Part shown: in pieces, positions 8,061 to 21,278 of the stretch
How positions within the stretch are numbered: the stretch's first letter is position 1
Layout of the letters: every line of letters begins with the position of its first letter
Assembly (NCBI GenBank): GCA_002747825.1
Contig: PDQQ01000013.1
Span: forward strand, 1 to 64,000
Direction of reading: 5' to 3'
Length of the DNA: 64,000 bases
Origin: Deltaproteobacteria bacterium
Lineage (GTDB): Bacteria; Desulfobacterota; Desulfobulbia; Desulfobulbales; Desulfocapsaceae
The notes under the pieces: model-generated
What the model saw: the letters and a program-made list of their open reading frames with translations, nothing else
What the model was told of the DNA's origin: nothing
Databases searched by the model: none
Made by a program: the position numbers and the translations under genes

Positions 8061-8870
8061 TTACCGAAAACGATATACAGGACGCGAAGATCGATCCAGA
8101 TAGTAGGGCATAACCTTTTCTGCCAGAATCGTCAGGGTCTGTTTGCGATGCGCCGAAGAGGGATGGGTCGAAAGAAACTCCGGCGGTTTCTTCCCACCAA
8201 GCTCGGCCATTTTAGTCCAGAGACTGACGGCAGCCCGAGGATCGTAACCGGCACGGGCCGCGAGATCAATACCCATTTCGTCGGCCTCTGCCTCGGCCGT
8301 TCTGCTGTTGGGCAGGTTAATGGCAACCATTGCCGCAGCGGCACTTCCGGTCAAAAGAGCGCCTCTGTAGTCACTGTCTCCGGCGGCGATGGACACTCCA
8401 GCAAGCCCCAGCTGTGAGGCAAGAGCTATCGACATACGCTCTGCGGTATGGTTGGCAAGGGCATGGGAAATTTCATGTCCCATCACCTGAGCAATCTCAT
8501 CGTCACTTGCCTTGAGCTTTTCGATAAGGCCGCTGTATATTGCCATCTTGCCGCCCGCCATACACCAGGCATTGACGATCTCCGGATCATCAATCACCGT
8601 AACATCCCACCCCCAATCTTTGGTATGTGGATACAGTGCGATGGCCTGGGCTATCAATCGCCCTGTAATCTTTTGCACCCTGCCGGTAAGAGCCCGGTCG
8701 TTGTCTACCCTGCCCTTTTCCCGCAGTGGTTTCAGGGTTTCGATATAGGCACTGCGGGATGACTTGATCGCCATCTCCGGAGAAACAAGCATCAATTGAG
8801 ATCTGCCCGTAGGGCTTTGCGCACAGGCGGTACATAACAAAACGATATATAGTAGAAAGAGTTTCTTCAT
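8061..8870 (-). CDS. M48-family metalloprotease lipoprotein
   Basis: Periplasmic zinc protease related to LoiP/YcaL/BepA. It has a lipoprotein signal peptide ending at the lipobox LCTAC (Cys about 16), the zinc motif HEISH near residue 137, and the third-ligand motif EAEADEMG near 197. At 269 residues it has the M48 catalytic core without the TPR domain of BepA. Relatives degrade misassembled outer-membrane proteins. A 3-prime neighbour 15 bp away encodes the DHH-CBS protein, with no obvious functional link. Confidence 0.85.
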   Translation of the reverse strand: MKKLFLLYIVLLCTACAQSPTGRSQLMLVSPEMAIKSSRSAYIETLKPLREKGRVDNDRALTGRVQKITGRLIAQAIALYPHTKDWGWDVTVIDDPEIVNAWCMAGGKMAIYSGLIEKLKASDDEIAQVMGHEISHALANHTAERMSIALASQLGLAGVSIAAGDSDYRGALLTGSAAAAMVAINLPNSRTAEAEADEMGIDLAARAGYDPRAAVSLWTKMAELGGKKPPEFLSTHPSSAHRKQTLTILAEKVMPYYLDRSSRPVYRFR

Positions 8871-8993: not shown

Positions 8994-9203
8994 TTATTTT
9001 TTTCGAAAAAAATTATATATACCAATAATTCCGAACAAACAAATTCCTAATTGAAGGACAATAACGCTTAGAGTGATGACAGGAACAGACTGTCTGGCTT
9101 TCAGCACAAGGTAGCTATTTAAAGCAACTGGAATGTTTATGCCTAGCAAAAAACAAATACCAACAACTATATTTTTTGCATAAGTATATTTTTTATCTTT
9201 CAA
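8994..9203 (-). CDS. Small two-helix membrane protein, function unknown
   Basis: A 69-residue frame with two hydrophobic segments (about residues 11-31 and 42-63), a basic N-terminus and a basic end (FFRKK), as expected for a small inner-membrane protein. It resembles nothing I recognise. It lies in a markedly A+T-rich stretch downstream of the TolC-like gene and could be the last gene of the exporter island. The hydrophobic pattern with charged ends argues for a real gene, but no homology is claimed. Confidence 0.4.
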   Translation of the reverse strand: MKDKKYTYAKNIVVGICFLLGINIPVALNSYLVLKARQSVPVITLSVIVLQLGICLFGIIGIYNFFRKK

Positions 9204-9336
9204 AAAATTTTGTATAATAAAAAACTGTCCAGATATAAAAAAATTAGAAAAGAAAATACCATGAAAAATTTAAGCATATCTTATTACCACTTTTCATCTT
9301 TTCAAATAATTTTATGAAGTACGTTTTTTAACAGGA

Positions 9337-10845
9337 TTAATGGGCTGCCTTAAAGAGTTCATCGGTGACTTTTATCTGATTTTCTGTGCCAGATAAAGAG
9401 CCGCGATCAAGAGCCAGCTCAAGCCATTCCCTATCCAGCACCCCCATTGTATACGCTAGGTTAGTTGCAGCAATATTGTAGGCAACCAAGGCTGCAACAG
9501 CTTCGTATTCAGCCCGTAAATAGGTATTTTTCGCATCTATTATTTCCAAATTATCAGAGAGGCCCTTCTCATATCTGATCTTTGCAAGATCAAGTGCCAT
9601 CACGGCCTGATGCAGCTTTTTTTGAGCTATTGCAGATTGTTCCTCTTCCATGAAAAGCTCCTGAATTGCCTCTTTTCCTTCCTGTAGGATGAGGCGTCGA
9701 AGAGCCTGTTCTTCCCGACGAGATTTATTTTGCTCAACCTGCAATTTCACAAGGGCATTTTTTTCCGCAAAGGAGTCAAAAGTCGAAAGTAATTCGAGCT
9801 GAATTGACCAGTTTGTCTTATCAAGCTGTAAGGCATCATCTGTACTATTTCCACGACCTTTCTGCTCTACGAGAAAACTGATCGCCACATCGGGCAACAG
9901 ATTTTTCTGCGCACGCTCATATGCCTTTTCCAGAATCTCCTTACGCACAAGTAAAGCCTGCCAATCAGGCCGAATCCGAAAAATATTATCAGTCCAATCC
10001 TCATCCAGAGCAGGAACCATCCTGACAATATTATCTGGCACTGTCAGAGAATCTTCATCTTCAAATCGCAGTAAATTTTTGAGATCATTCCTCGCTCTTT
10101 CAGTGAATTGCAGCCGATTCTGAATCATTGACTCAGCATCCAGTACAGAGAGTTCCGCTCTGTAAACATCAGTCTTAGCAACAAGGCCCAGAGCTGCTTT
10201 AGATACGGCAGCTTGCAGATGTTCCTTTGACCGTTGCAATGCCAACTCCGCATCCTTTTGCAGCTGTTCTGCCAAGCATAAATTGTAGTAATACCGGACA
10301 GTATCCCTGATAAGACGCTGCTTGGCGCGTTCTACAGAGATCTCACTTTCCCTGGCCCTCAACTCAGCCACGTTCAGTTCGGTAAGATTATAGTTGCGCC
10401 CCCATCTCCTCCAAAGCCCTTGAGATATCTTTACATAGGCTCTGGCATTATGAGAATAAGCTGTCAGATAATCACCATTTTCATCTATCCTATTACCAGC
10501 AAATCCATACCGAAGAGTAGAACCAAAGGACGTGTCTCGACGTATTTCCAGACCAAGTGTTTGTGCGCCAGTACCTTTATGTAGGCCAAAAGAGGTAAGA
10601 GGGATTATTTTTGAATCGAAACGATGTTCTGCGGACAATATATCCATGCGGGTAAGTCGGATAGTATCCTGAAAGTCAAGAGCTTCATCGCTCTGACGCA
10701 AAGCCATATCAACAACATTCAACAAACTCAAATTCCGGGCATATGAACATACCACTGACACAATAACCGTTGAAATGGTGACAAGAACAACACCAACCAA
10801 CTTTTTCCAAACATCCTTGCCCCCAAAGGTTCCTCGTTTAAACAT
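9337..10845 (-). CDS. TolC-family outer-membrane efflux protein
   Basis: Outer-membrane channel of the TolC/OEP family. The 502 residues have an N-terminal hydrophobic export segment followed by two related halves rich in long helices with heptad-like Ala/Leu/Gln/Glu content, typical of the TolC periplasmic barrel. A tyrosine/asparagine-rich pair (RYYYNLCLAEQ) ends the first helical block. It is a plausible outer-membrane exit for the MacAB-like genes encoded upstream on the same strand. Start choice is uncertain: ATG at 10845 is used, but GTG at 10872 is in frame and neither has a clear ribosome binding site. A gap of about 450 bp with repeats separates it from the upstream gene. Confidence 0.8.
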   Translation of the reverse strand: MFKRGTFGGKDVWKKLVGVVLVTISTVIVSVVCSYARNLSLLNVVDMALRQSDEALDFQDTIRLTRMDILSAEHRFDSKIIPLTSFGLHKGTGAQTLGLEIRRDTSFGSTLRYGFAGNRIDENGDYLTAYSHNARAYVKISQGLWRRWGRNYNLTELNVAELRARESEISVERAKQRLIRDTVRYYYNLCLAEQLQKDAELALQRSKEHLQAAVSKAALGLVAKTDVYRAELSVLDAESMIQNRLQFTERARNDLKNLLRFEDEDSLTVPDNIVRMVPALDEDWTDNIFRIRPDWQALLVRKEILEKAYERAQKNLLPDVAISFLVEQKGRGNSTDDALQLDKTNWSIQLELLSTFDSFAEKNALVKLQVEQNKSRREEQALRRLILQEGKEAIQELFMEEEQSAIAQKKLHQAVMALDLAKIRYEKGLSDNLEIIDAKNTYLRAEYEAVAALVAYNIAATNLAYTMGVLDREWLELALDRGSLSGTENQIKVTDELFKAAH

Positions 10846-11176
10846 ATCTATACCCAAAAGACAACAACCCACTACTTACGTACCCAAGCCCTCTTTCAGC
10901 AAGACCGACGTATTCAAAAAGGTATCGCAAAATCCTTCACCAATCTCATGTTGTTGAAATGAGCATTTTGCCGAATCCACAAAGTTAGACTTGACTTCTG
11001 GTATAAAGCAGGTGCAAACCCAAAAACCAGCCACACAACCAGAAGATCTTTCGCTTCCCGGGGACATAACAGAGTTTACTGTAAGACTCGAGAATTATGA
11101 TTAAAATGGAATTTTTAAGCCCAACCGTAGTCAGCTTGATTGCGTGGTTAAACGGAGCACGTAGCTTGGCCACATA

Positions 11177-11208
11177 ATTGCAAGCCTCGTTAAGACGGAA
11201 CGCGGAGC
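11177..11208 (+). repeat. First copy of a 32-bp direct repeat
   Basis: The unit begins ATTGCAAGCCTCG and continues TTAAGACGGAACGCGGAGC. It matches a second copy at 11227-11258 at 29 of 32 positions, including an exact 21-bp block. A more diverged copy (ATTG...GTTAAACGGAGCACGTAGC) lies near 11140-11166, giving a period of roughly 40-50 bp. It sits in the 450-bp gap between two minus-strand genes of the exporter island. Confidence 0.7.
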
Positions 11209-11226
11209 TTATTCACATGACTCTTG

Positions 11227-11271
11227 ATTGTAAACCCCGTTAAGACGGAACGCGGAGCGGTCCGTCTTAAC
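11227..11271 (+). repeat. Second repeat copy extended into an 11-bp perfect hairpin
   Basis: Positions 11227-11258 are the second copy of the 32-bp repeat. Within it, GTTAAGACGGA (11239-11249) is followed after 11 bases by its exact complement TCCGTCTTAAC (11261-11271). This forms a long stem just downstream of the stop codon of the minus-strand gene ending at 11296. It may act as a transcript-end structure, although no U-tract follows, or may be a REP-like element. Confidence 0.65.
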
Positions 11272-11295
11272 AAACCAATATGTAGAAAAAAAAAT

Positions 11296-12354
11296 TTATC
11301 TGGTGTAACTCGCTGTAACCTCCCCCGACAAAGAGAAGGATTTCGAGGTACCTTGAACTGTACCAGAATACGGACCTACTTTATCAGTGGAACTAAAATA
11401 ATCAGGACTAAAGCTGAGGAAGTAACTCCCCTCAGGAAGACTTGTACTCTGACTCAGATTCCAATCTCCCGATCCCAAACCGTTAGTGGTACTATACCTA
11501 CCATTCTCAGAAAAGGTTATTGAATAGTTTCGGGAAAAACCACTCCCTTGTTCAGAAACCTGCCAGGTACCAAGAATAGATGTAGCATTAAGGGGGCTTT
11601 CGTCTTCATCATCACCATCAAAACCGACCGCGGCGACCACACCTCCAGCCACAGCTATTGCCGCGACCGAAGCCGTCACTATTGCAGAGGTCGTCATTGA
11701 AGAAGTTGATGCAACGACGGTCCCGGCCGCGACACTGTCTGCAGCCCCTTCACTGAGTGTTGTATACAAACCCGCAACAATACCAAATTTAGAAGACGAC
11801 TCAACAACATCAAAAACCATATTATCGGAAAAACCAGGCAGATCCTGAGGGATATTATTCATCTCGGTATAAACCCTAACAGGCTCCAAATCTTGTCTTT
11901 CCTTGTCCGAATTTTTCACTGGAATGTCATACGTCTGGCTTTTGACAACAATATTATCATCATTTTTCACAAGGAAGAGATACGAAACCGAGCCAGAGCC
12001 ATTGGCCGGGGCTGGCAACGTTGCTGTGTAGGCTCCACCATCAAAATCAGAGCCAAGCTGTTTAAATTTATCTACCAGCCCTTTCTCTGTCTTCTCCATT
12101 GGCACAAAAACATAGTTCGCATCTTCCACAGCCTTGAAATAGACACGTACAACATCCACTCCATTCGGATCTGCTACCTCTGCATAGAGAACAATGCGTT
12201 CACCCGCCGTTAGCTGATCAACAGGGTTATGCCTTATTTGGGTAGTTGGTTGTATCTGTTCAGTATTTGTTGAAACAGCGTGGGCAGAACAGTTCAAAAA
12301 AACCATAGTCAAGACGAGTAGTCTAGCCAACGTATGACGAAAAATTCTGGTCAT
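11296..12354 (-). CDS. Secreted protein of unknown function in the exporter island
   Basis: A 352-residue exported protein I do not recognise. It starts at ATG 12354, preceded by GGAGGAG on the minus strand. After a signal peptide come, in order: an Ig-like beta-rich region (about residues 40-150, with a VYFKAVEDANYVFVPM segment), a linker, an Ala/Val/Ser-rich hydrophobic stretch (about 215-245) that could span a membrane, an acidic patch DGDDEDE, and a C-terminal domain of about 95 residues beginning LGTWQVSEQGSG, which looks like a lipocalin-like beta-barrel fold. It lies between the permease gene and the TolC-like gene, all in one direction. It may be a cargo or accessory surface protein of that exporter. 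Confidence 0.6.
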   Translation of the reverse strand: MTRIFRHTLARLLVLTMVFLNCSAHAVSTNTEQIQPTTQIRHNPVDQLTAGERIVLYAEVADPNGVDVVRVYFKAVEDANYVFVPMEKTEKGLVDKFKQLGSDFDGGAYTATLPAPANGSGSVSYLFLVKNDDNIVVKSQTYDIPVKNSDKERQDLEPVRVYTEMNNIPQDLPGFSDNMVFDVVESSSKFGIVAGLYTTLSEGAADSVAAGTVVASTSSMTTSAIVTASVAAIAVAGGVVAAVGFDGDDEDESPLNATSILGTWQVSEQGSGFSRNYSITFSENGRYSTTNGLGSGDWNLSQSTSLPEGSYFLSFSPDYFSSTDKVGPYSGTVQGTSKSFSLSGEVTASYTR

Positions 12355-12603
12355 GTTTTCTCCTCCCAAAGGCCTATGCCCTCTTTATATTGTCAATTTC
12401 TTTACTGGTACCCTTTGTAAATAGTATATACGAACAACCATCTTCAGATATTTAACATTGTAATGCATTGTCATTCACTCTGCAAATAATCGAGGCAGGA
12501 TAACACACGGTCTCTTTTTTGTGAGAACCGCCAGCCAACGTATCTTGATTTTGACATTGTCAATTGTATATCCATTGTACAACGCAACAACGAAATCCAC
12601 AGT

Positions 12604-13848
12604 TCAATGTTCCCGAAGAGCAAGCGCAGGTTCAAGGCCGGCAGCTCTTATAGCAGGATATAGACCAAAGACAACACCGGTTATAATCGCCGCCATAGGA
12701 GCAATAAGAATACTTATTTCACTGAAGGCAACGTCCCATTCTGCATACTGCTGGATGCCTATGGCAAAGAGGATACCGGCCACTACGCCCCAAATACTAC
12801 CGAAAAAGCTGAGAAGCACAGAATGACAGAGGTACAAATAGAGAATCCGTCGAGGAGTGCCACCTATAGCCAATCGAAGAGCAATTTCTCTTGTCTGTTC
12901 AGCAATATTTGCCAGCATTACATTGAGTACACCAATCCCCCCAACCAAAAGAGAAAGCCCGGCAATCGATCCCATAATAAAAGAAAAGATTATCTGACTT
13001 GCCTTTGCCTCCTTTAACAGAGATTCTGGTACAATGATCTGAAAGTCCTTGATCCCCCTGTGCCGCCGTAACAATATTTCTTCGACCTGACCTGCCGTAT
13101 CGACAAGAGATCTCCCTTGGGAACGAAAAAGCTTGATAACGATACCATCAACCGAGGGAATCTCTCCGATTGGACGACGAAGAGGCAAGGTGGAAATGGG
13201 CAAATAAACAGCATTGTCGAAGTCAAGACTGGAAAGGCCTGTTCCTTCTGTCATTAATTTACCCTTAGAGCGGGCTATCCCCACTACCGTGCAAAGCTGG
13301 TTTTCGACTTGAATAACCGAACCCAATTGAGCCTGTAACAAACGCGCGGTATCGGCACCTAAAACACAATTACGGGATTTTTTTCTCACATCTATTGCAA
13401 GGAGCTTCCGACCTTCGGCTATTGCCAATTGCTCCACCTGAAACCAGACAGCATCCACACCGACCGCCATTGTCTTTGTCTTGCTCGTGAGATATCGAGC
13501 TCTGGATTCATCAATTTTTCGATACCCGGTCACGAGTCCTCCCCCATCAAACCATCCTCTGAGAAATTGCCGATCCTTCAGAGTCAGCCCCCGGGAAAGA
13601 TTTGTCAACCCGTTTTGCTCCGAATCATTGAAAGAGTTTCTCTCTATTCTTAGACTATAAATTCCAAGTGATTCTATGGCCTGCAGAGTGCTGACCCGTG
13701 CCCCCTCACTTATTGACAACATAGCAATCAGAGAGGCCACTCCAATACCTATCCCCAGACTGCTCAAAAAGAATCTCAACGGTCTTCGCTTAAGACTCGT
13801 CCAACTGTCCCTTATGTCAAGGATGAGAAATCTATAATTCTTGAACAT
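12604..13848 (-). CDS. MacB/FtsX-type ABC transporter permease
   Basis: Membrane subunit of a MacB-like mechanotransmission ABC transporter. The 414 residues show one N-terminal membrane helix (about 28-50), a large periplasmic domain of about 215 residues and three C-terminal helices with the FtsX signature around EQTREIALRLAIGGTPRRI. This equals the second half of MacB; the ATPase is a separate gene directly upstream with no gap (13849/13848). Transporters of this type do not pass substrate through the membrane but drive periplasmic substrates out through a TolC-like channel. Confidence 0.88.
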   Translation of the reverse strand: MFKNYRFLILDIRDSWTSLKRRPLRFFLSSLGIGIGVASLIAMLSISEGARVSTLQAIESLGIYSLRIERNSFNDSEQNGLTNLSRGLTLKDRQFLRGWFDGGGLVTGYRKIDESRARYLTSKTKTMAVGVDAVWFQVEQLAIAEGRKLLAIDVRKKSRNCVLGADTARLLQAQLGSVIQVENQLCTVVGIARSKGKLMTEGTGLSSLDFDNAVYLPISTLPLRRPIGEIPSVDGIVIKLFRSQGRSLVDTAGQVEEILLRRHRGIKDFQIIVPESLLKEAKASQIIFSFIMGSIAGLSLLVGGIGVLNVMLANIAEQTREIALRLAIGGTPRRILYLYLCHSVLLSFFGSIWGVVAGILFAIGIQQYAEWDVAFSEISILIAPMAAIITGVVFGLYPAIRAAGLEPALALREH

Positions 13849-14550
13849 TTAGGCACCCGGACTGGATCGTTTATCGAGCCTCAATACCCTGGTAGCGTAC
13901 TGCTCCAAGGCTGCATCGTGTGACACCATGACCACAATCCGCCCCAAATCTGCCTGTTCGCGGAGCAATTTCACCAGCTTTAAAGAATTTTCAGAGTCCA
14001 GATTTCCCGTTGGTTCATCGGCAAAGATGACCTGCGGTTCCCGGACTAATGCCCTGGCAAAAACAACTCGCTGCATCTCTCCGCCAGAGAGCGTGGCCGG
14101 GTATCTCTGCGCCAGCTCCTCTAAACCGATGAATTTTAACAAGGCCATACAGTGGAACTCTATCAGCTCTCGAGAAATGGCCTTTCCGTAGTGAAAAGGC
14201 AGGGTAATGTTCTCGAAAACCGTCTTGTCTGCGAGAAGATACGGCGTCTGAAATATGAATCCGTAAGCCCTGTTACGCAAATTGGCAAGAGCAGAAGAAG
14301 ACATTCTTTGTAAAGAGAGACCAGCAAAAAAGACTTCCCCCTGACTAGGGCTGTCAAGACCACTGAGCAGATGCAGGAAGGTCGATTTACCCACACCAGA
14401 GGGCCCACAAACAAATAAAAACTCTCCTGCCTGTAACCGTAAAGATAATGGCTGCAGAGCAAGAATTTTCTCGTCTCCCCAACCGTAAGACCGACTAACA
14501 TTTTTGGCCTCAAGCAGAAAGTTTTGATCAGATTGGGCAGATGTCTTCAT
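13849..14550 (-). CDS. MacB/LolD-type ABC transporter ATPase
   Basis: Cytosolic ATPase subunit partnering the FtsX-type permease. Visible motifs are Walker A GPSGVGKST (about residue 42), the signature LSGGEMQRV (about 145), Walker B VIFADEP (about 165) followed by the D-loop GNLDSE, and the switch histidine in MVSHD. The 233-residue length is standard for the LolD/MacB/FtsE branch. Its ATG overlaps the last codon of the adaptor gene by 4 bp, and its stop is next to the permease start, so adaptor, ATPase and permease form one translationally coupled operon. Confidence 0.9.
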   Translation of the reverse strand: MKTSAQSDQNFLLEAKNVSRSYGWGDEKILALQPLSLRLQAGEFLFVCGPSGVGKSTFLHLLSGLDSPSQGEVFFAGLSLQRMSSSALANLRNRAYGFIFQTPYLLADKTVFENITLPFHYGKAISRELIEFHCMALLKFIGLEELAQRYPATLSGGEMQRVVFARALVREPQVIFADEPTGNLDSENSLKLVKLLREQADLGRIVVMVSHDAALEQYATRVLRLDKRSSPGA

Positions 14551-15989
14551 GGTTTGGGTAAGAGGATGGTATCACCGGGACGCAGCCCATCAACAACTTC
14601 TACCCAGAGACTGCCTTGGGCTCCGACGGTTATCTGTTGTTCGCGCGGCGTATCATTGTCGAACAGTTGAACGGTGGTTTTACCTTGTCGGAAACGGATA
14701 GCATTCAAAGGAATCGCCGTCACATCAGACACTGAACGATAGAGGATATGGGCCGTTGCAGACATCCCGACATGAATTTTTTCTGTATTACCGAGTAAAC
14801 GAATTCGGGTTGCAAAGGTTTTCAGCCCCGAATCTTGCCCGTCTTCAAGAGGAAGAATAGATACGGACTCGACCTCCCCAGAAAATTCTTGCAGAGGAAA
14901 GGCATCTACCTCGAGAGACACCTTCATCTTCCTGCTCATTTTGGCGACATCTATTTCTCTGACAGAAATATCCAAGACAAGAGCACTGGTGTCCGGAATT
15001 TGCAAAAAAGGTTGGCCAATCCAGACAGAATCACCGACCTGGACCTTTCTTTTCCCATTGTTTCTGGGAAGTTTTATGTATAGAAGAATACCAGAAGACG
15101 GAGCATAAATATCGCAATTGACGATATCTTCTTTGGCTTTTTTTACCTCTTTTAACCTCATCTCGACGAGTCGTTCAACCTTTGTTACTTCTGATTTTTT
15201 GTTTTGGATCATCAAATCCGCCATTCGTTTTACCCTCTGCAACTCAGCTTCAGAACCGGAGACTAAAAGGCTTGCCTTGCTTTTCATTTGCGGCCAGACA
15301 TAAGCATCAAAATTCTTAAGCTCAACCTGAGCAACAACAAGATTTTCCTGAGCTGTGAGAAAAGCCTTTTCGACCTTGTCAAACTCTCTGTTACCTACAT
15401 AACCTTTGTCAAGAAGGGACTCTTGATCATCTCGTTCGAGTTTGGCGATATTTACTGCCCGTTTCTGCTGGGCAAGTTTCTGTTCAAGAATTCTTCGCTT
15501 CAGGGGACCGGAACCTTCAAGGATCTCGGTAGCCTCCATTTTTGCCATTTCATACTTTCTGATGGCTTCCTGAATCTTGCCCTGCTCCTCTTCCTCTTGC
15601 ATAGACAGTGCTTTTTGGGCTACAAGCAACGTTGCATAGGCATCGTTGAGATCAATTTCTGCCTTTTCAAGACGATCCATAAATGGTTTAGCGTCAAAAC
15701 GAGCAACCAGAACATTCTTACGCACCCAGGTCCCCTCGTCGGCCAACCAGACAATCTTTGCTTGATTACTGGATATTTTTGAGGAGATTGGAATAATGCG
15801 GGCTGGATTGATGGTACCTCGTTCGTTCACGGTAAGAAAAAAGCTCTTCTTACCGACCCTGTATGTAGTAAAATCCTGATTCTCTTGTTCTGCCGAAACA
15901 AAAAACCAGTACACCGTCAGACAAGAACAGCAGACAAGTAAAAAGATGCTGTACAAAAGAGGTCTGAAATATTGTTTGTTGCCTATCAT
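14547..15989 (-). CDS. HlyD/MacA-family periplasmic adaptor
   Basis: Membrane fusion protein linking the ABC pump to an outer-membrane channel. It has an N-terminal signal/anchor (about residues 10-30), a first half-lipoyl strand region, a long coiled-coil hairpin (about 95-285, rich in Lys, Glu, Ala, with repeated KAE/RAE patterns), a second lipoyl segment and a C-terminal beta-barrel region with a terminal DGLRPGDTILLPKP. The last element is typical of MacA-like adaptors. It overlaps the ATPase gene by 4 bp. At 480 residues it is longer than MacA (371), mainly in the coiled coil. Confidence 0.85.
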   Translation of the reverse strand: MIGNKQYFRPLLYSIFLLVCCSCLTVYWFFVSAEQENQDFTTYRVGKKSFFLTVNERGTINPARIIPISSKISSNQAKIVWLADEGTWVRKNVLVARFDAKPFMDRLEKAEIDLNDAYATLLVAQKALSMQEEEEQGKIQEAIRKYEMAKMEATEILEGSGPLKRRILEQKLAQQKRAVNIAKLERDDQESLLDKGYVGNREFDKVEKAFLTAQENLVVAQVELKNFDAYVWPQMKSKASLLVSGSEAELQRVKRMADLMIQNKKSEVTKVERLVEMRLKEVKKAKEDIVNCDIYAPSSGILLYIKLPRNNGKRKVQVGDSVWIGQPFLQIPDTSALVLDISVREIDVAKMSRKMKVSLEVDAFPLQEFSGEVESVSILPLEDGQDSGLKTFATRIRLLGNTEKIHVGMSATAHILYRSVSDVTAIPLNAIRFRQGKTTVQLFDNDTPREQQITVGAQGSLWVEVVDGLRPGDTILLPKP

Positions 15990-16306
15990 TAAATGAGATA
16001 CATCCAGCTATAAAAAGGTAAAACTCAACTCTTTCAATATGTTGCAAATTTACTACAACGGGGAGACTCCACAATATACGACTACAAAAAAAATTACTTT
16101 GATTGCTCATGGGCAAAGTTTATGAGCCAAATGCATTGCTCTCTTTACACTGCAGAAAAAATGATTGTTGGGCCGTATTTCTGATAAACGTTTTTTGCAG
16201 ACCAAGGCAAGGATTTATGCTTCCATTCTGAAAGGATCTCGAGCAAATCTTTTGGGTTCGTTCTTCCCCCTTCAATGGTTTTTCTTCTCCAGTAACTATA
16301 CCTTCA
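15990..16306. other. Gene-free stretch upstream of the adaptor gene
   Basis: About 320 A+T-rich bases between the CsgG-like gene and the adaptor gene, both on the minus strand. It should hold the promoter of the adaptor-ATPase-permease operon. No repeat, RNA family or convincing short gene was recognised. Confidence 0.35.
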
Positions 16307-17626
16307 TCAATAGGCTTCGTCTATGGCATTAACAATTTCACGAACAGCCCTTTTGGCCGCAAGATGTATAGCCCCAGATCGGGCTTTGAGTTGACTGGCG
16401 CCTTGAATAGCTACGTAATCTTGCTGGAAATCAGAAATATGCAAGATTTTTTTGTCTTTTATCCGAATCGCCTTGGCGGTAAAAAGAACGCTGCTCTGCT
16501 TCGCTTTGAGTTTCCCGGTATATTGTGCATCATAGTTTTGAAACAAGATAGTCCCCGATATAACGATGTCAGCTCCTGCCGCCTTACCAGCCTTGATGGC
16601 ATAGGCGGCGAGACCCGACCGGGCCTGAAGCAGATTTTCAAGATCGGTGAGCTCTTCCTCGGTTACCCAATCACCCAGCAACACATTTTGCCCCCCGGCA
16701 ATAGAATAGGCACGATTGACGATATCACCTGCGGTGAGAACCTGTGCCCCCCGTGCATGAAAGCCCTTGGCCATAGCCTGTTCCGCCATACTCAGATCAA
16801 GTATGCCTGCAGTATCTTCAACATCTTTCTTGTCATCCACCTGTTTTTCTGCAAAAAGAAAGAGTATTTTCACATCATTTGACAATTGAACCAGCGAGGA
16901 TTTCGGTTTGTTGTCTCTATGGTCAGCAGACTTTGCCAGATGATACTTCTGTAATCTTGGGCTAAGCTCGGCAAAGCCTCTGTTGAGAGCCGCTTCGAGC
17001 ACCTGATTGGCCATCATGGTATCGTTACCACCAGCTGCCCCAAAACCAAGAGTCTGGGTAATTTGCCTGGTCTTTTCACTTGATCCTGCTGCAGTGGCTA
17101 CGATTTCATTTGTAATCGCATCTTTTACTGTCAATTCAACCACCACGGAAACAACTTGCTTCTTCAATTTGGAAAAGGCGGTAGATGTATACTCCATTCG
17201 CTCACTGTACCCGGTGATACTCCCCATAATAAAGTAATCATTTAACAAAACGCCTCTTATCTGCCTGCTGACGTCTTTATCCTGGTTCAGATCAGACCAA
17301 TGCAGATTTCTTCGCAACAGGACATCTTCCAGATTTGTCCAGTCGATAACCTTAAAGTGCTGACTCTGCTTGAGATGGCGAACGATAGAATCACTTACTC
17401 CGCTTTCTTTGAATACCAGCTTGGCTGTCGGATGCTCAATGTTCACCTTGGCAACCGCAATCGTACCAAGATGCAAGGGACGGAGGCTGGGCGATTGTAG
17501 CGTGGGCGGAGATGATTTCGTCGCAGAGAAAGATACGTTTTTTTCGGCTGTACAGCCCGCAAGAGTTCCAAGTACAATCGTAACACAGAATACATATCGC
17601 AAGTATCGTGCAGTTCTCATTTTCAT
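16307..17626 (-). CDS. CsgG-like outer-membrane lipoprotein with a second C-terminal domain
   Basis: A 439-residue lipoprotein (lipobox LAGC, Cys about 25). Residues about 55-225 look like a CsgG/FlgO-type domain: a strand region around LGTIAVAKV, VIDWTNLEDVLLRRN, a DYFIMGSITGYSE segment and a long strand region VVSVVVELTVKD. Residues about 245-435 form a second alpha/beta domain (DIVISGTILFQNY, ISDFQQDYVAIQG) like LPP20/CsgG-related families. CsgG itself (277 residues) makes the curli secretion pore; a fused second half is unusual. The DUF799-like gene is 14 bp upstream on the same strand, so the two are probably an operon. No curli subunit gene was found in the window. Confidence 0.6.
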   Translation of the reverse strand: MKMRTARYLRYVFCVTIVLGTLAGCTAEKNVSFSATKSSPPTLQSPSLRPLHLGTIAVAKVNIEHPTAKLVFKESGVSDSIVRHLKQSQHFKVIDWTNLEDVLLRRNLHWSDLNQDKDVSRQIRGVLLNDYFIMGSITGYSERMEYTSTAFSKLKKQVVSVVVELTVKDAITNEIVATAAGSSEKTRQITQTLGFGAAGGNDTMMANQVLEAALNRGFAELSPRLQKYHLAKSADHRDNKPKSSLVQLSNDVKILFLFAEKQVDDKKDVEDTAGILDLSMAEQAMAKGFHARGAQVLTAGDIVNRAYSIAGGQNVLLGDWVTEEELTDLENLLQARSGLAAYAIKAGKAAGADIVISGTILFQNYDAQYTGKLKAKQSSVLFTAKAIRIKDKKILHISDFQQDYVAIQGASQLKARSGAIHLAAKRAVREIVNAIDEAY

Positions 17627-17640
17627 ATCTCGTCGTTTTT

Positions 17641-18330
17641 CTATTTTTTTACAGCAGTTGTTTGAATCGCTGAATCCAGTAAAGAGTCCCCCTGGGAAAC
17701 CGTAATGACAGGGCCATCGGGCATATTGGCTAACATCATATCGGCCAAAGCATACACAGCTTCTTGCTTTTTGCCCCCTGCTTCTACGAGCACGACATCA
17801 AGAAACATATTTATCGGATCTATCGCAAAACGTCTTTTTGCAACTCGTTCCTGTAGCGATACCCAAAGAACTTTCCCCTCTCTATTCTGCAGTTTCAGAG
17901 AACAGGTAAAAACATATGAATTATACAGCCCCGCATGCTGTTTGGCGGCCTGTTCTACGACTCCCGAGAGAAAAGCGTCTGCCGAAGTGAGCTTCTGCAA
18001 TTGATGAAAAGAAAGCAGGCGGAGCTGACCTGCGTTATACACTCCGAGATCACGCAGTTTCTGGTCAACAATATCACGATCTATCACAGAAAAGCCCTTT
18101 GCCCGAAGCCGCTGAGCCAGACGTGTACGGAAATGATAGGCGATATCTCCATCAACAGTGAGATTCTCCATCGGCAAAATGGCAATTGAATATTTTGAGG
18201 CCGACTGTAAATCTCGCAAGAACTGCGGATCACTCTGTGAGTCTACACCAACATTTTCATTGGCGATACCCGGAGAAACCGCAAAAAATAAACAACAAAA
18301 CATGATATACAGAAAAAAATTTTTTAGCAC
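17641..18330 (-). CDS. DUF799/GNA1162-like exported protein
   Basis: A 229-residue exported protein with an N-terminal signal sequence (LYIMFCCLFFAVSPGIA). The core (YSIAILPMENLTVDGDIAYHF, shown in shorter form as ILPMENLTVDG; then GFSVIDRDIVDQKL; then DAFLSGVV) follows the pattern of DUF799 proteins, which are structurally related to CsgG's periplasmic domain and TolB N-termini. Family members such as GNA1162 are usually lipoproteins; here the cysteines lie inside the hydrophobic core and no clear lipobox is visible. The start is GTG at 18330 or ATG at 18303. It is 14 bp from the CsgG-like gene, suggesting the two products work together. Confidence 0.6.
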   Translation of the reverse strand: MLKNFFLYIMFCCLFFAVSPGIANENVGVDSQSDPQFLRDLQSASKYSIAILPMENLTVDGDIAYHFRTRLAQRLRAKGFSVIDRDIVDQKLRDLGVYNAGQLRLLSFHQLQKLTSADAFLSGVVEQAAKQHAGLYNSYVFTCSLKLQNREGKVLWVSLQERVAKRRFAIDPINMFLDVVLVEAGGKKQEAVYALADMMLANMPDGPVITVSQGDSLLDSAIQTTAVKK

Positions 18331-18740: not shown

Positions 18741-19616
18741 ATGCGAACCATCATCTGTGTACTCTTTTTTCTTCTCTTTACTCCAGGAGTGGTGCATGCC
18801 ACTGAAAAAACATTAGTTTTTGTCAGTATACTACCACAGAAATTCTTTGTTGAAAAGCTGGCCCAAAACCTGGTTGATGTCGAGGTTATGGTCCAACCCG
18901 GTGCCAGTCCGGCAACATATGAAATAAGGCCTTCCCAGCTAAAAAAATTGAGCCAGGCCGCTATCTTCTTTACCATCGGTGTCAACTTTGAACGTGCATG
19001 GCTGAAAAGGTGCTTGGCGATAAACCCGAATCTTCGGATCGTACAGACAGACCAAGGCATAGAAAAACGGGCTATGGCCTCACACCACCACAAAGACGAG
19101 CATCGGCATGCCGAAAAGCCCTCTGAGCACGGTCTTGACCCGCATATCTGGTTATCACCGAGGCTGGTAAAAATGCAGGTGCAAACCATTGCCAAAGGTC
19201 TGGAGGATATCCTGCCCGAAAAAGCGGCACAGATCAGAAAAAAAAAGGCTGCCTTTATAAAAGAGATAGACGGACTGCAAAACCAACTGCGGGAGATACT
19301 GGTGGCAAAAGCCGGTATGCGTTTTATGGTTTTCCACCCCAGCTGGGGCTATTTTGCAGACGATTTTAAGCTCGAACAGATTCCGATTGAGCTTGAGGGC
19401 AAAGAACCGAAGATATCACAGCTCCAGGGCTTGATAAAACATGCCAGAGAGAAAGGCATACACGTAATTTTTACCCAACCCCAATTTTCAGAAAAGAGCG
19501 CCCGGCTGATCGCAAAAGAGATCGGCGGCCGGGTCGTGCCGCTTGATCCACTGGCTGAGAACTGGCTGGAAAATATGAAAAAGGTCACAGAACAATTCAG
19601 AGACACGGTGCAATGA
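18741..19616 (+). CDS. znuA: Zinc ABC transporter substrate-binding protein
   Basis: Periplasmic zinc-binding protein of the cluster A-I type. It has a signal peptide (about residues 1-20), the LPQKFFVEKLA start of the family, and a histidine-rich loop (SHHHKDEHRHAEKPSEHG, about residues 113-130) followed by the ligand motif DPHIWLSP. Further ligands are in FHPSWGY and the terminal DPL region. The His-rich loop indicates zinc rather than manganese. It overlaps znuC by 4 bp. Confidence 0.9.
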   Translation: MRTIICVLFFLLFTPGVVHATEKTLVFVSILPQKFFVEKLAQNLVDVEVMVQPGASPATYEIRPSQLKKLSQAAIFFTIGVNFERAWLKRCLAINPNLRIVQTDQGIEKRAMASHHHKDEHRHAEKPSEHGLDPHIWLSPRLVKMQVQTIAKGLEDILPEKAAQIRKKKAAFIKEIDGLQNQLREILVAKAGMRFMVFHPSWGYFADDFKLEQIPIELEGKEPKISQLQGLIKHAREKGIHVIFTQPQFSEKSARLIAKEIGGRVVPLDPLAENWLENMKKVTEQFRDTVQ

Positions 19617-20374
19617 AAGAGACCGGAACCGGCGAACCGCTTGTGGAGATAGAAGATCTCTGCTATTCCATAGGCGGTAGAGATATACTCCACGACATAC
19701 ATCTCACCATCAAACGTGGTGACTTTATCTCTATTATCGGGCCCAACGGTGGTGGAAAAACGACCCTCCTGAAATTGATACTTGGTCTTCTCGAACCAAC
19801 CAGAGGCCGGATAGGCTTTCCCGGCGAACAATCGATGGAAAAGACGGTATCAATCGGCTACGTTCCACAGTATGTAAACCACAATCTCAACTTTCCGGCA
19901 ACCGCAATAGATGTGGTTCTTATGGGCAAGCGCAGACCGAAACGCAGATTTCGTCTTGGCTTTTCGGCAAAGGAGAGGGCCCTCGCCGGTACAACCCTTG
20001 ACAAGCTGGGCGTTGGAGCCTGCGCCAAACAGAAAATCGCCACACTCTCCGGCGGCCAGAGACAGCGGGTGCTCATTGCCCGCGCCCTGATCTCAGACCC
20101 AAACCTTCTGATTCTCGACGAACCAACCGCCTCCATTGACACGAAAGGCCAGGCCGAACTCTACGAATTGCTGGTAAACATCAACAGGGAACAGACAATC
20201 CTGCTGGTCAGCCACGATCTGCTGATGCTCTCTAACTATACCAAATCAATCGTCTGCCTCAACAGACGATTGCTCCACCACAAGCACATAACTTCGTCAA
20301 ACGAGGTACTACAGGCCTTCTATTCATGCTCGGAGGAAACGCTCTGTCCCGTCGACCTCATCGCAAAAAAATAG
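19613..20374 (+). CDS. znuC: Zinc ABC transporter ATPase
   Basis: Cytosolic ATPase of the zinc importer. Motifs are Walker A GPNGGGKTT (about residue 43), signature LSGGQRQRV, Walker B LLILDEP and switch SHD. The position after znuA and before a nine-helix permease gene makes zinc the likely substrate. The 253 residues are normal for the family. Confidence 0.9.
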   Translation: MKETGTGEPLVEIEDLCYSIGGRDILHDIHLTIKRGDFISIIGPNGGGKTTLLKLILGLLEPTRGRIGFPGEQSMEKTVSIGYVPQYVNHNLNFPATAIDVVLMGKRRPKRRFRLGFSAKERALAGTTLDKLGVGACAKQKIATLSGGQRQRVLIARALISDPNLLILDEPTASIDTKGQAELYELLVNINREQTILLVSHDLLMLSNYTKSIVCLNRRLLHHKHITSSNEVLQAFYSCSEETLCPVDLIAKK

Positions 20375-20393
20375 TAGAGAACAGGGGGAGAGA

Positions 20394-21278
20394 ATGATCG
20401 AGGCACTACAGTTTGAATTTTTTCGTAACGCCTGCATTGCCGGCCTCTTGGCCAGTGTTATCTGTGGTGTGATCGGAACACTGATTGTCGTCAACCGCCT
20501 GGTTTTTCTCTCCGGAGGAGTTGCCCACAGCGCCTACGGCGGAATTGGTCTGGCTTTTTTTATGGGCTGGCCATACATGCTGGGGGCCACCTCTTTCGCC
20601 TTTGTCTCTTCGATGGTGATGGCCGCTGTTTCGATACGGAAAAAACAACGTGCAGATACAATTATAGGAGTGATGTGGGCCGTAGGTATGGCCACCGGCA
20701 TACTGCTTCTCGACCTGACTCCCGGGTACAATGTTGACCTTATGAGCTATCTCTTTGGTTCGATACTCAGTGTTCCATTTTCAGATCTTCTGGCCATGGG
20801 AGGGGTAACAGGCATTATTCTGCTGACGATCCTGCTGTTCTACGACGATCTGCTTATTATGTCTTACGATGAAGAATTCGCAAAGGTTCAGGGTGTGGCC
20901 GTTTCCCGCTTGTATTTTATGCTCATTGGCCTGATTGCGATAACCGTGGTCGTCCTTGTACAGGTTGCCGGACTGATACTTGTTATCGCCCTGCTTAGCA
21001 TACCACCGTATATCGCCGAGAAATATACAAGATCCTTATTGGCAATGATGCTTGTTTCGTCTCTGCTGGGGGCTGTTTTTATTTTTCTCGGACTGTGGGC
21101 CGCCTATAGATTTGATCTTACTTCAGGGGCCTCCATTATTTTAGTGGCAGGTTGTGGCTTCTTTGTCTCCTTTCTGATGGACCTCTTCATCGGCCTGCGC
21201 AGAAAAAGGCTCTGGTTAAAGCTGCATATGAAAGATATGCCTGAAAAAGGCCTGAACGATCCATCTGTCAGCCATTAA
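20394..21278 (+). CDS. znuB: Zinc ABC transporter permease
   Basis: Integral membrane permease of the ABC-3 family with about eight to nine hydrophobic helices over 294 residues. The start at 20394 is preceded by GGGGGAG. The N-terminal FFRNACIAGLLASVICGVIG and the GGVAHSAYGGIGLAF segment are typical of ZnuB. It completes the znuACB operon, which runs opposite to the neighbouring transglycosylase gene. Confidence 0.9.
   Translation: MIEALQFEFFRNACIAGLLASVICGVIGTLIVVNRLVFLSGGVAHSAYGGIGLAFFMGWPYMLGATSFAFVSSMVMAAVSIRKKQRADTIIGVMWAVGMATGILLLDLTPGYNVDLMSYLFGSILSVPFSDLLAMGGVTGIILLTILLFYDDLLIMSYDEEFAKVQGVAVSRLYFMLIGLIAITVVVLVQVAGLILVIALLSIPPYIAEKYTRSLLAMMLVSSLLGAVFIFLGLWAAYRFDLTSGASIILVAGCGFFVSFLMDLFIGLRRKRLWLKLHMKDMPEKGLNDPSVSH

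What the first reader, a model, noticed from the sequence alone, without database searches (positions are those of the whole stretch)
8994..18330. Exporter island combining a MacAB/TolC-like pump with a CsgG-like lipoprotein and a DUF799-like partner
All genes from 18330 down to 8994 run in one direction: DUF799-like protein, two-domain CsgG-like lipoprotein, adaptor, ATPase, permease, a secreted Ig-like/lipocalin-like protein, TolC-like channel, small membrane protein. A mechanotransmission pump plus CsgG-type outer-membrane components is not a standard named system as far as I know. The secreted protein between pump and channel genes could be the cargo or a surface component. The island is more A+T-rich than its flanks.
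Basis: partly seen in the sequence, partly recalled or inferred. Interest (0 to 1): 0.75.

Follow-up and report, generated by a model that had tools for sequence, protein, structure and literature searches.

The report
Efflux pump with ring-lipoprotein partners
This stretch of DNA from a relative of Desulforhopalus carries, side by side, genes for a predicted envelope-spanning pump and for two envelope proteins that likely form a collar on the pump's exit duct; the same combination recurs, in reshuffled order, in related bacteria.

Summary
Window 9337-18330 (minus strand) encodes a GNA1162/DUF799-like secreted protein, a lipoprotein of two domains (CsgG-like, then TolB-N-like), an adaptor, a separate ATPase, a MacB-like permease, a secreted Ig-like protein (SECR) and a TolC-family duct. 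The 69-aa protein at 8994 found no relative in the loci searched. The block coincides with the A+T-richest stretch of its length in the window; in a same-genus genome its place, between an M48 protease gene and znuA, holds one unrelated gene, so it looks like an inserted unit. The halves do co-occur: the tandem CsgG is in 4 of 257 class genomes, in all 4 beside this DUF799 protein, and in 3 of 4 with pump genes in the same cluster, in differing order; the fourth ends at a contig edge. But 11 of 14 close pumps lack the pair nearby. Best reading: a type VII ABC exporter whose duct, which has no lipid-anchor motif, is probably held by a lipid-anchored CsgG/TolB-N plus DUF799 collar, as PelC, PqiC and YbjP do for other systems. 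Cargo unknown; a curli-type pore is unlikely.

The parts
17641..18330 (-). GNA1162/DUF799-like secreted protein, 229 aa, signal-like N-terminus without lipobox
   Evidence: PF05643 E 2.7e-8; no lipobox in the window, nor at the likely signal of the 3 other close members; PDB 4hrv GNA1162 only E 0.13 by sequence
16307..17626 (-). Tandem-domain lipoprotein, 439 aa: CsgG-like domain, then TolB-N-like domain
   Evidence: PF03783 E 1.8e-9; AF2 model mean pLDDT 72.6, pTM 0.44; fold matches; lipobox LAGC
14547..15989 (-). Periplasmic adaptor (HlyD/MacA type), 480 aa, one N-terminal hydrophobic segment
   Evidence: PF16576, PF13437; TIGR01730 85 bits against a cutoff of 94.9
13849..14550 (-). ABC ATPase of the LolD/MacB/FtsE kind, 233 aa
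   Evidence: PF00005 E 8.7e-28; LolD model E 1.3e-60 but below its cutoff
12604..13848 (-). MacB-like permease, 414 aa, four hydrophobic segments, periplasmic core domain
   Evidence: PF12704 E 3.2e-27 and PF02687 E 1.1e-15; four peaks
11296..12354 (-). SECR: secreted protein of 352 aa from the ATG (357 aa from the upstream TTG): Ig-like domain, hydrophobic Gly/Ala-rich segment, variable C-terminal beta domain
   Evidence: model pLDDT 80, residues 219-250 below 50; Ig-like match; hydrophobic peak at 230-248 of the 357-aa frame; family alignment of 25 of 28 hits
9337..10872 (-). TolC-family outer-membrane duct; start codon unsure; no lipobox
   Evidence: PF02321 E 1.2e-20; no lipobox-like motif in the first 90 residues in the window or in 13 related pump loci
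8994..9203 (-). 69-aa membrane protein at the block's end; membership doubtful
   Evidence: two hydrophobic segments, G+C 0.295; no tblastn hit in the loci
8061..8870 (-). Left flank: M48 metalloprotease, not part of the system
   Evidence: PF01435 E 3.8e-38; in G008 it lies next but one to znuA, without the island
18741..21278 (+). Right flank: znuA, znuC, znuB-like genes, not part of the system (names recalled from the sequences, no family scan run on these)
   Evidence: syntenic with G008 L137

Best explanation
The island encodes homologues of a split MacB-type (type VII ABC) exporter, its adaptor and a TolC-family duct, together with a tandem CsgG/TolB-N lipoprotein and a secreted GNA1162-like protein that are predicted to form an accessory collar at the duct's outer-membrane end. 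Shown here: the gene content, domain calls (families and models), the co-occurrence in reshuffled order, the absence of a lipid-anchor motif on the TolC homologue and its presence on the CsgG homologue, and a related genome without the block. Inferred: ATPase and permease would drive periplasmic motions by mechanotransmission and move a periplasmic cargo through adaptor and duct, as reviewed for MacB (PMC5985334); [quoted passage not shown] SECR, taken to the periplasm by its signal peptide, is most likely an envelope or surface protein served by or tethered to the machine, less likely its folded cargo. The block behaves as a unit that was probably acquired at this site.
Against: No interaction was tested. 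Of 14 close pumps in the class, 11 lack the pair in the stretches read (up to 20 kb, some cut by contig ends), one of which (G005) keeps SECR, so the pump stands without the collar genes in most species. G013's only close pump is on another contig than its pair. Five CsgG relatives on contigs over 15 kb (P0011, P0021-P0024) show no matching pump contig, though the pump search was word-limited. On the adaptor tree CsgG-linked pumps are scattered (7 changes; 8 of 500 shuffles as low), so the link was gained or lost repeatedly; unlabelled rows on short contigs are simply unknown. YbjP is not required for efflux under laboratory conditions, and non-lipidated TolC is common without it (PMC13082787, abstract and passages), which weakens the anchor argument. 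Ring formation cannot be seen in a monomer model of moderate confidence. CsgG distances partly mirror the species tree.
Confidence: 0.42

Rival explanations
1. Loose neighbourhood: an all-purpose type VII ABC efflux pump and a separate envelope lipoprotein pair (for example a peptidoglycan-linked or LpoB-like activator) sit together because both belong to an envelope or surface island, with no physical contact.
For: 11 of 14 close pumps lack the pair; CsgG-DUF4810-DUF799-type operons in G026, G103 and G111 have no pump recognised nearby (DUF4810 confirmed by Pfam in G026 and G111); link scattered on the tree.
Against: Pair and pump are together in three gene orders and two families of the class; contig-length linkage above a jitter control; distance correlation; the low-G+C block encloses both halves.
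Confidence: 0.27
2. Curli-type secretion: the CsgG-like protein forms its own outer-membrane pore that exports SECR, and the pump is a helper or unrelated.
Against: Between shared motifs the first hairpin region is 42 residues against 47, and the second 47 against 57, in a full CsgG of the same family (G027); the model shows one strand and then coil there; no CsgE, CsgF or curlin-like gene was recognised among the 8 proteins scanned; a TolC duct is already present; G072 shows no SECR on its 7-kb contig.
Confidence: 0.1
3. SECR is the pump's cargo: like the peptide STII it reaches the periplasm by Sec and is pushed out through adaptor and duct.
For: MacB-type pumps take Sec-exported periplasmic substrates (PMC5985334, passages); SECR has a signal peptide and is encoded with the pump in window, G006 and G005.
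Against: SECR is about 350 residues with a predicted folded Ig domain and a hydrophobic segment; it occurs without pump or pair in G012, G002, G028 and at a second place in G006, and is absent from 11 of 14 close pump loci.
Confidence: 0.12

Closest known systems
MacAB-TolC and other type VII ABC tripartite pumps
   Same: Adaptor, MacB_PCD plus FtsX permease with four hydrophobic segments, related ATPase, TolC-family duct
   Different: ATPase and permease are separate proteins (as YknY and YknZ are, PMC5985334); permease far below the NCBIfam MacB cutoff (147 of 966 bits); CsgG and DUF799 genes attached
CsgG curli secretion lipoprotein
   Same: Fold of the first domain, lipobox, Pfam CsgG above cutoff
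   Different: Short second hairpin region, second TolB-N-like domain, no curli genes recognised beside it
CsgG-DUF4810-DUF799 (GNA1162) operon
   Same: CsgG and DUF799 families as neighbours; compact CsgG form alike
   Different: No DUF4810 gene between; DUF799 member without lipobox; CsgG has a second domain; pump genes attached
PelC, PqiC and LptE-type outer-membrane lipoproteins
   Different: No sequence relationship shown; ring not tested; partner here would be a TolC duct
YbjP, lipoprotein partner of E. coli TolC
   Same: Lipoprotein that adds a lipid anchor to a non-lipidated duct, seen on MacAB-TolC (PMC13082787)
   Different: DUF3828 family according to that paper; not compared with the CsgG fold here

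Membership tests
MacAB-TolC pump | MacB periplasmic core domain and FtsX-type permease | tested here: met
   PF12704 E 3.2e-27, PF02687 E 1.1e-15, four hydrophobic segments
MacAB-TolC pump | ATPase and permease fused in one MacB chain | tested here: not met
   separate ORFs 13849-14550 and 12604-13848; MacB model 147 bits (permease) and 171 bits (ATPase) against 966
MacAB-TolC pump | adaptor and TolC-family duct | tested here: met
   PF16576, PF13437, PF02321
CsgG curli secretion channel | CsgG domain above Pfam cutoff and CsgG fold | tested here: met
CsgG curli secretion channel | lipoprotein signal | tested here: met
   LAGC in the window; cysteine nearly invariant (90% or more) in A1; strict regex match in 12 of 25 rows
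CsgG curli secretion channel | two membrane-spanning beta hairpins per subunit (recalled) | tested here: inconclusive
   second hairpin region 47 residues against 57 in the G027 CsgG; no second strand there in the model
CsgG curli secretion channel | curlin and CsgE/CsgF partners in the locus | tested here: inconclusive
   none recognised by Pfam or NCBIfam among the 8 window proteins scanned; the assembly is 57% complete and was not searched for them
GNA1162 (DUF799) lipoproteins | PF05643 above cutoff | tested here: met
   34 bits against 25.9
GNA1162 (DUF799) lipoproteins | lipoprotein signal | tested here: not met
   no lipobox at the likely signal in 4 of 4 close members (one regex match in L024 lies before the likely start)
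CsgG-DUF4810-DUF799 operon | DUF4810 gene between the two | tested here: not met
   14 bp between the two genes in the window, 5 bp in G006; DUF4810 is present in L116 and L119
PelC/PqiC ring lipoproteins | ring-shaped oligomer on an outer-membrane partner | not testable with these tools
   no multimer prediction was available

The most novel reading that the evidence does not exclude
A new envelope machine: a MacB-type exporter whose TolC duct is clasped by stacked rings of a CsgG/TolB-N lipoprotein and a GNA1162-like protein, moved between species as one block with an Ig-like display protein, and, where a PilZ gene sits inside the cluster (G006), under cyclic-di-GMP control. It would join efflux pumps to the CsgG/FlgT/LPP20 ring families, and the second context in which the same pump stands beside an adhesin-like cluster would be a sister version.
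Probability: 0.27. Interest if true: 0.75.

Novelty: new variant of a known kind. Interest (0 to 1): 0.52.

Why it matters
Type VII ABC pumps, CsgG-fold lipoproteins and GNA1162-like proteins are each widespread (recalled), and for DUF799 and DUF4810 the held library gave no functional study by title (DUF799 3 papers, DUF4810 none, GNA1162 6, mostly vaccine antigen work). If the pair docks on the duct, it gives DUF799 and compact CsgG proteins a concrete job, testable in one pull-down, and extends to a gene cluster the recent finding that a lipoprotein partners TolC.

Tried and rejected
Rejected: CsgG as a full pore (short second hairpin region). The 69-aa protein as a core part (no hit). A mobile element with terminal repeats: only a 12-nt inverted match near the two ends (E 0.018), whose left copy is the stretch just before the M48 start codon, and no remnant of the gene that stands there in G008. 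RNA families (gathering threshold) or tRNAs as an insertion site: none in the window. Promoters and terminators: no excess over shuffles. Plasmid carriage of the CsgG protein: no match in 72,556 records. Genome-contig scan with the CsgG alignment: 2 loci. Phylum search, 395 genomes: 14 matches, only the window's own full-length. By sequence the CsgG profile found no CsgG entry in the PDB at E up to 1, so the call rests on Pfam and the fold. The tree used the quick method, with 97 inner branches of which 25 are open; of 94 adaptor hits it left out P0119, P0131 and P0146 (430 residues or less) and P0147-P0149; it did not show one origin of the link. In the chance estimate (0.27 expected against 6 of 14 pumps with a CsgG-domain gene within about 12 kb) three of the six are a different protein, CsgG fused to an FGE domain, and relatedness is ignored, so it is only a rough guide.
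Full report
WHAT IS THERE. All genes of the finding are real ORFs on the minus strand. From 18330 downwards: DUF799/GNA1162-like protein, CsgG-like lipoprotein, adaptor (MFP), ATPase (ATP), permease (PERM), a secreted protein that I call SECR, a TolC-family duct, and a 69-aa membrane protein. Pfam names all of the seven scanned but SECR above cutoff (the small protein was not scanned). MFP, ATP and PERM overlap or abut; DUF799 and CsgG are 14 bp apart; the other gaps are 133-423 bp. The host is a 1.22-Mb, 57% complete assembly; G006 of the same genus is named Desulforhopalus sp. by NCBI (protein P0008 on a contig of G006's length).

CO-OCCURRENCE. In 257 genomes of the class, 9 match the CsgG alignment at E 1e-5 and 4 of these over full length: window, G006, G013, G072. 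DUF799-like proteins are in 48 of 257, but only those same 4 are close (52-67%, E below 1e-70; the next best is E 7.5e-11). Close adaptors (E below 1e-100, 41-51% identity, window aside) are in 14 of 257, of 54 at E 1e-20. I read the neighbourhoods of these 14, in stretches of up to 20 kb, some cut by contig ends: 3 have the DUF799-CsgG pair (window, G006, G072); 1 has SECR only (G005); 5 (G012, G002, G014, G013, G028) lie beside a different cluster with a 440-530 aa protein (in the one scanned, from G028, a CsgG match of E 0.054, below cutoff), an LPP20-like protein (sub-threshold in the G012 copy), a DUF2807-like protein and, in four of the five, a repeat protein recognised by blast; 5 (G163, G170, G169, G027, G010) show none of these. 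SECR is beside the pump in 3 of 14. G013's own SECR-DUF799-CsgG genes lie at the end of another contig, which stops inside csgG. The protein searches add contigs: 8 of 25 CsgG proteins share an exact contig length with a SECR or adaptor hit (two are the window's own and G006's), against 0.14 after jittering the lengths, and P0017 is the protein of G072 read directly. Seventeen of the 25 show no such match: P0017, eleven on contigs under 10 kb, and five on contigs over 15 kb (P0011, P0021-P0024), which stand as possible counter-examples.

ONE UNIT. Gene order differs between the three clusters while the core content is kept (G072's contig ends in the adaptor). The adaptor tree scatters the linked pumps, so the link is old with losses, or repeated. 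The block coincides with the A+T-richest stretch of its length in the window, with GC3 of 0.39-0.51 against 0.48-0.60 for seven neighbours (0.23 for the small ORF). In G008 the same flanks, M48 and znuACB, are separated by one 393-aa gene; a relative of it also adjoins M48 in G004 and G010 (blastp) and, by its printed N-terminus, in G007, while G011 shows another ORF there. G008 has no close pump (best 23% identity), tandem CsgG or DUF799 hit. This fits insertion of the whole block here; loss in G008 is less likely given the composition, but only one empty site was seen.

HOW IT LIKELY WORKS. MacB-type transporters are thought not to carry substrate through the inner membrane but to drive periplasmic cargo through adaptor and duct; STII is Sec-exported first (PMC5985334, passages). 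PelC forms a ring of twelve lipoproteins on the PelB barrel (PMC12141448, abstract and passages); PqiC is an octameric toroid that steadies an envelope-spanning transporter at the outer membrane (PMC10897342, passages); YbjP binds TolC in MacAB-TolC and supplies a lipid the duct lacks, yet is dispensable for efflux in the laboratory (PMC13082787, abstract and passages). Here no lipobox-like motif was found in the first 90 residues of the duct in 14 of 14 loci (window and 13 others), while the CsgG protein has one in the window, G006 and G013 (none matched in G072, whose start is unsure). Hence the collar reading, at 0.42.

KNOWN OR NEW. No paper in the held library was found that joins these parts: searches 'GNA1162 and CsgG' (1 paper, a serology study), 'DUF799' (3), 'DUF4810' (0), 'GNA1162' (6, mostly vaccine antigens), 'CsgG, MacB, operon, outer membrane lipoprotein' with at least 3 terms (47 papers, 15 listed, none on point by title), 'FlgT, CsgG, TolB, lipoprotein' with at least 3 terms (9) (listings only); a review of tripartite systems does not mention CsgG in the 300,000 of 747,799 characters held. 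Subscription papers are mostly absent from that library. I class it as a new variant of a known kind: a type VII ABC tripartite exporter with a new accessory module.

Noticed in passing
L106:2200-7204, L105:11817-17102, L107:6175-10714, L108:2-6992, L110:1-7483: In five genomes the same pump family sits beside a conserved cluster: 112-aa secreted-looking protein, 440-530 aa protein, LPP20-like protein, DUF2807-like protein, an Asn/Gly/Ala-rich repeat protein (four of five by blast) and in two an HtrA-type protease. It looks like a surface fibre or adhesin system (it recalls HfaABD, from memory) and may deserve its own study.
   Followed up: partly
L106:13867-15633, L110:14817-16601, L105:3543-5342: A CsgG-domain protein fused to an FGE-sulfatase domain (PF03783 E 4.7e-18, PF03781 E 2.3e-45 in the L110 copy), with PEGA-like and SPOR-like (both sub-threshold) neighbours, on the other side of the same pump in three genomes.
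   Followed up: partly
L023:11161-14384: Two neighbouring SPFH/Band 7 proteins (565 and 509 aa) upstream of SECR and the pump in G005, with a 337-aa gene between.
   Followed up: no
L024:10861-11544: A protein with a C-terminal PilZ domain inside the full cluster of G006, between SECR and TolC, suggesting cyclic-di-GMP control there.
   Followed up: partly
L030:211-1361, L031:10065-11240, L032:9938-11133, L036:9519-10734: A short SECR-like protein (221-262 aa) paired with a small lipoprotein-like protein of 130-152 aa in four same-genus genomes; a GGDEF response regulator lies near in L032 (Pfam) and, by its N-terminus, in L031.
   Followed up: partly
L115:2734-4152: In G072 a 472-aa protein with a weak LipL46 match (E 1.4e-4, below cutoff; no Pfam match) stands between CsgG and TolC, where G006 has SECR and a PilZ protein; FlgT-like by eye only.
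   Followed up: partly
window 11177-11258: Two 91% identical 32-nt copies spaced 50 bp apart between SECR and TolC.
   Followed up: no
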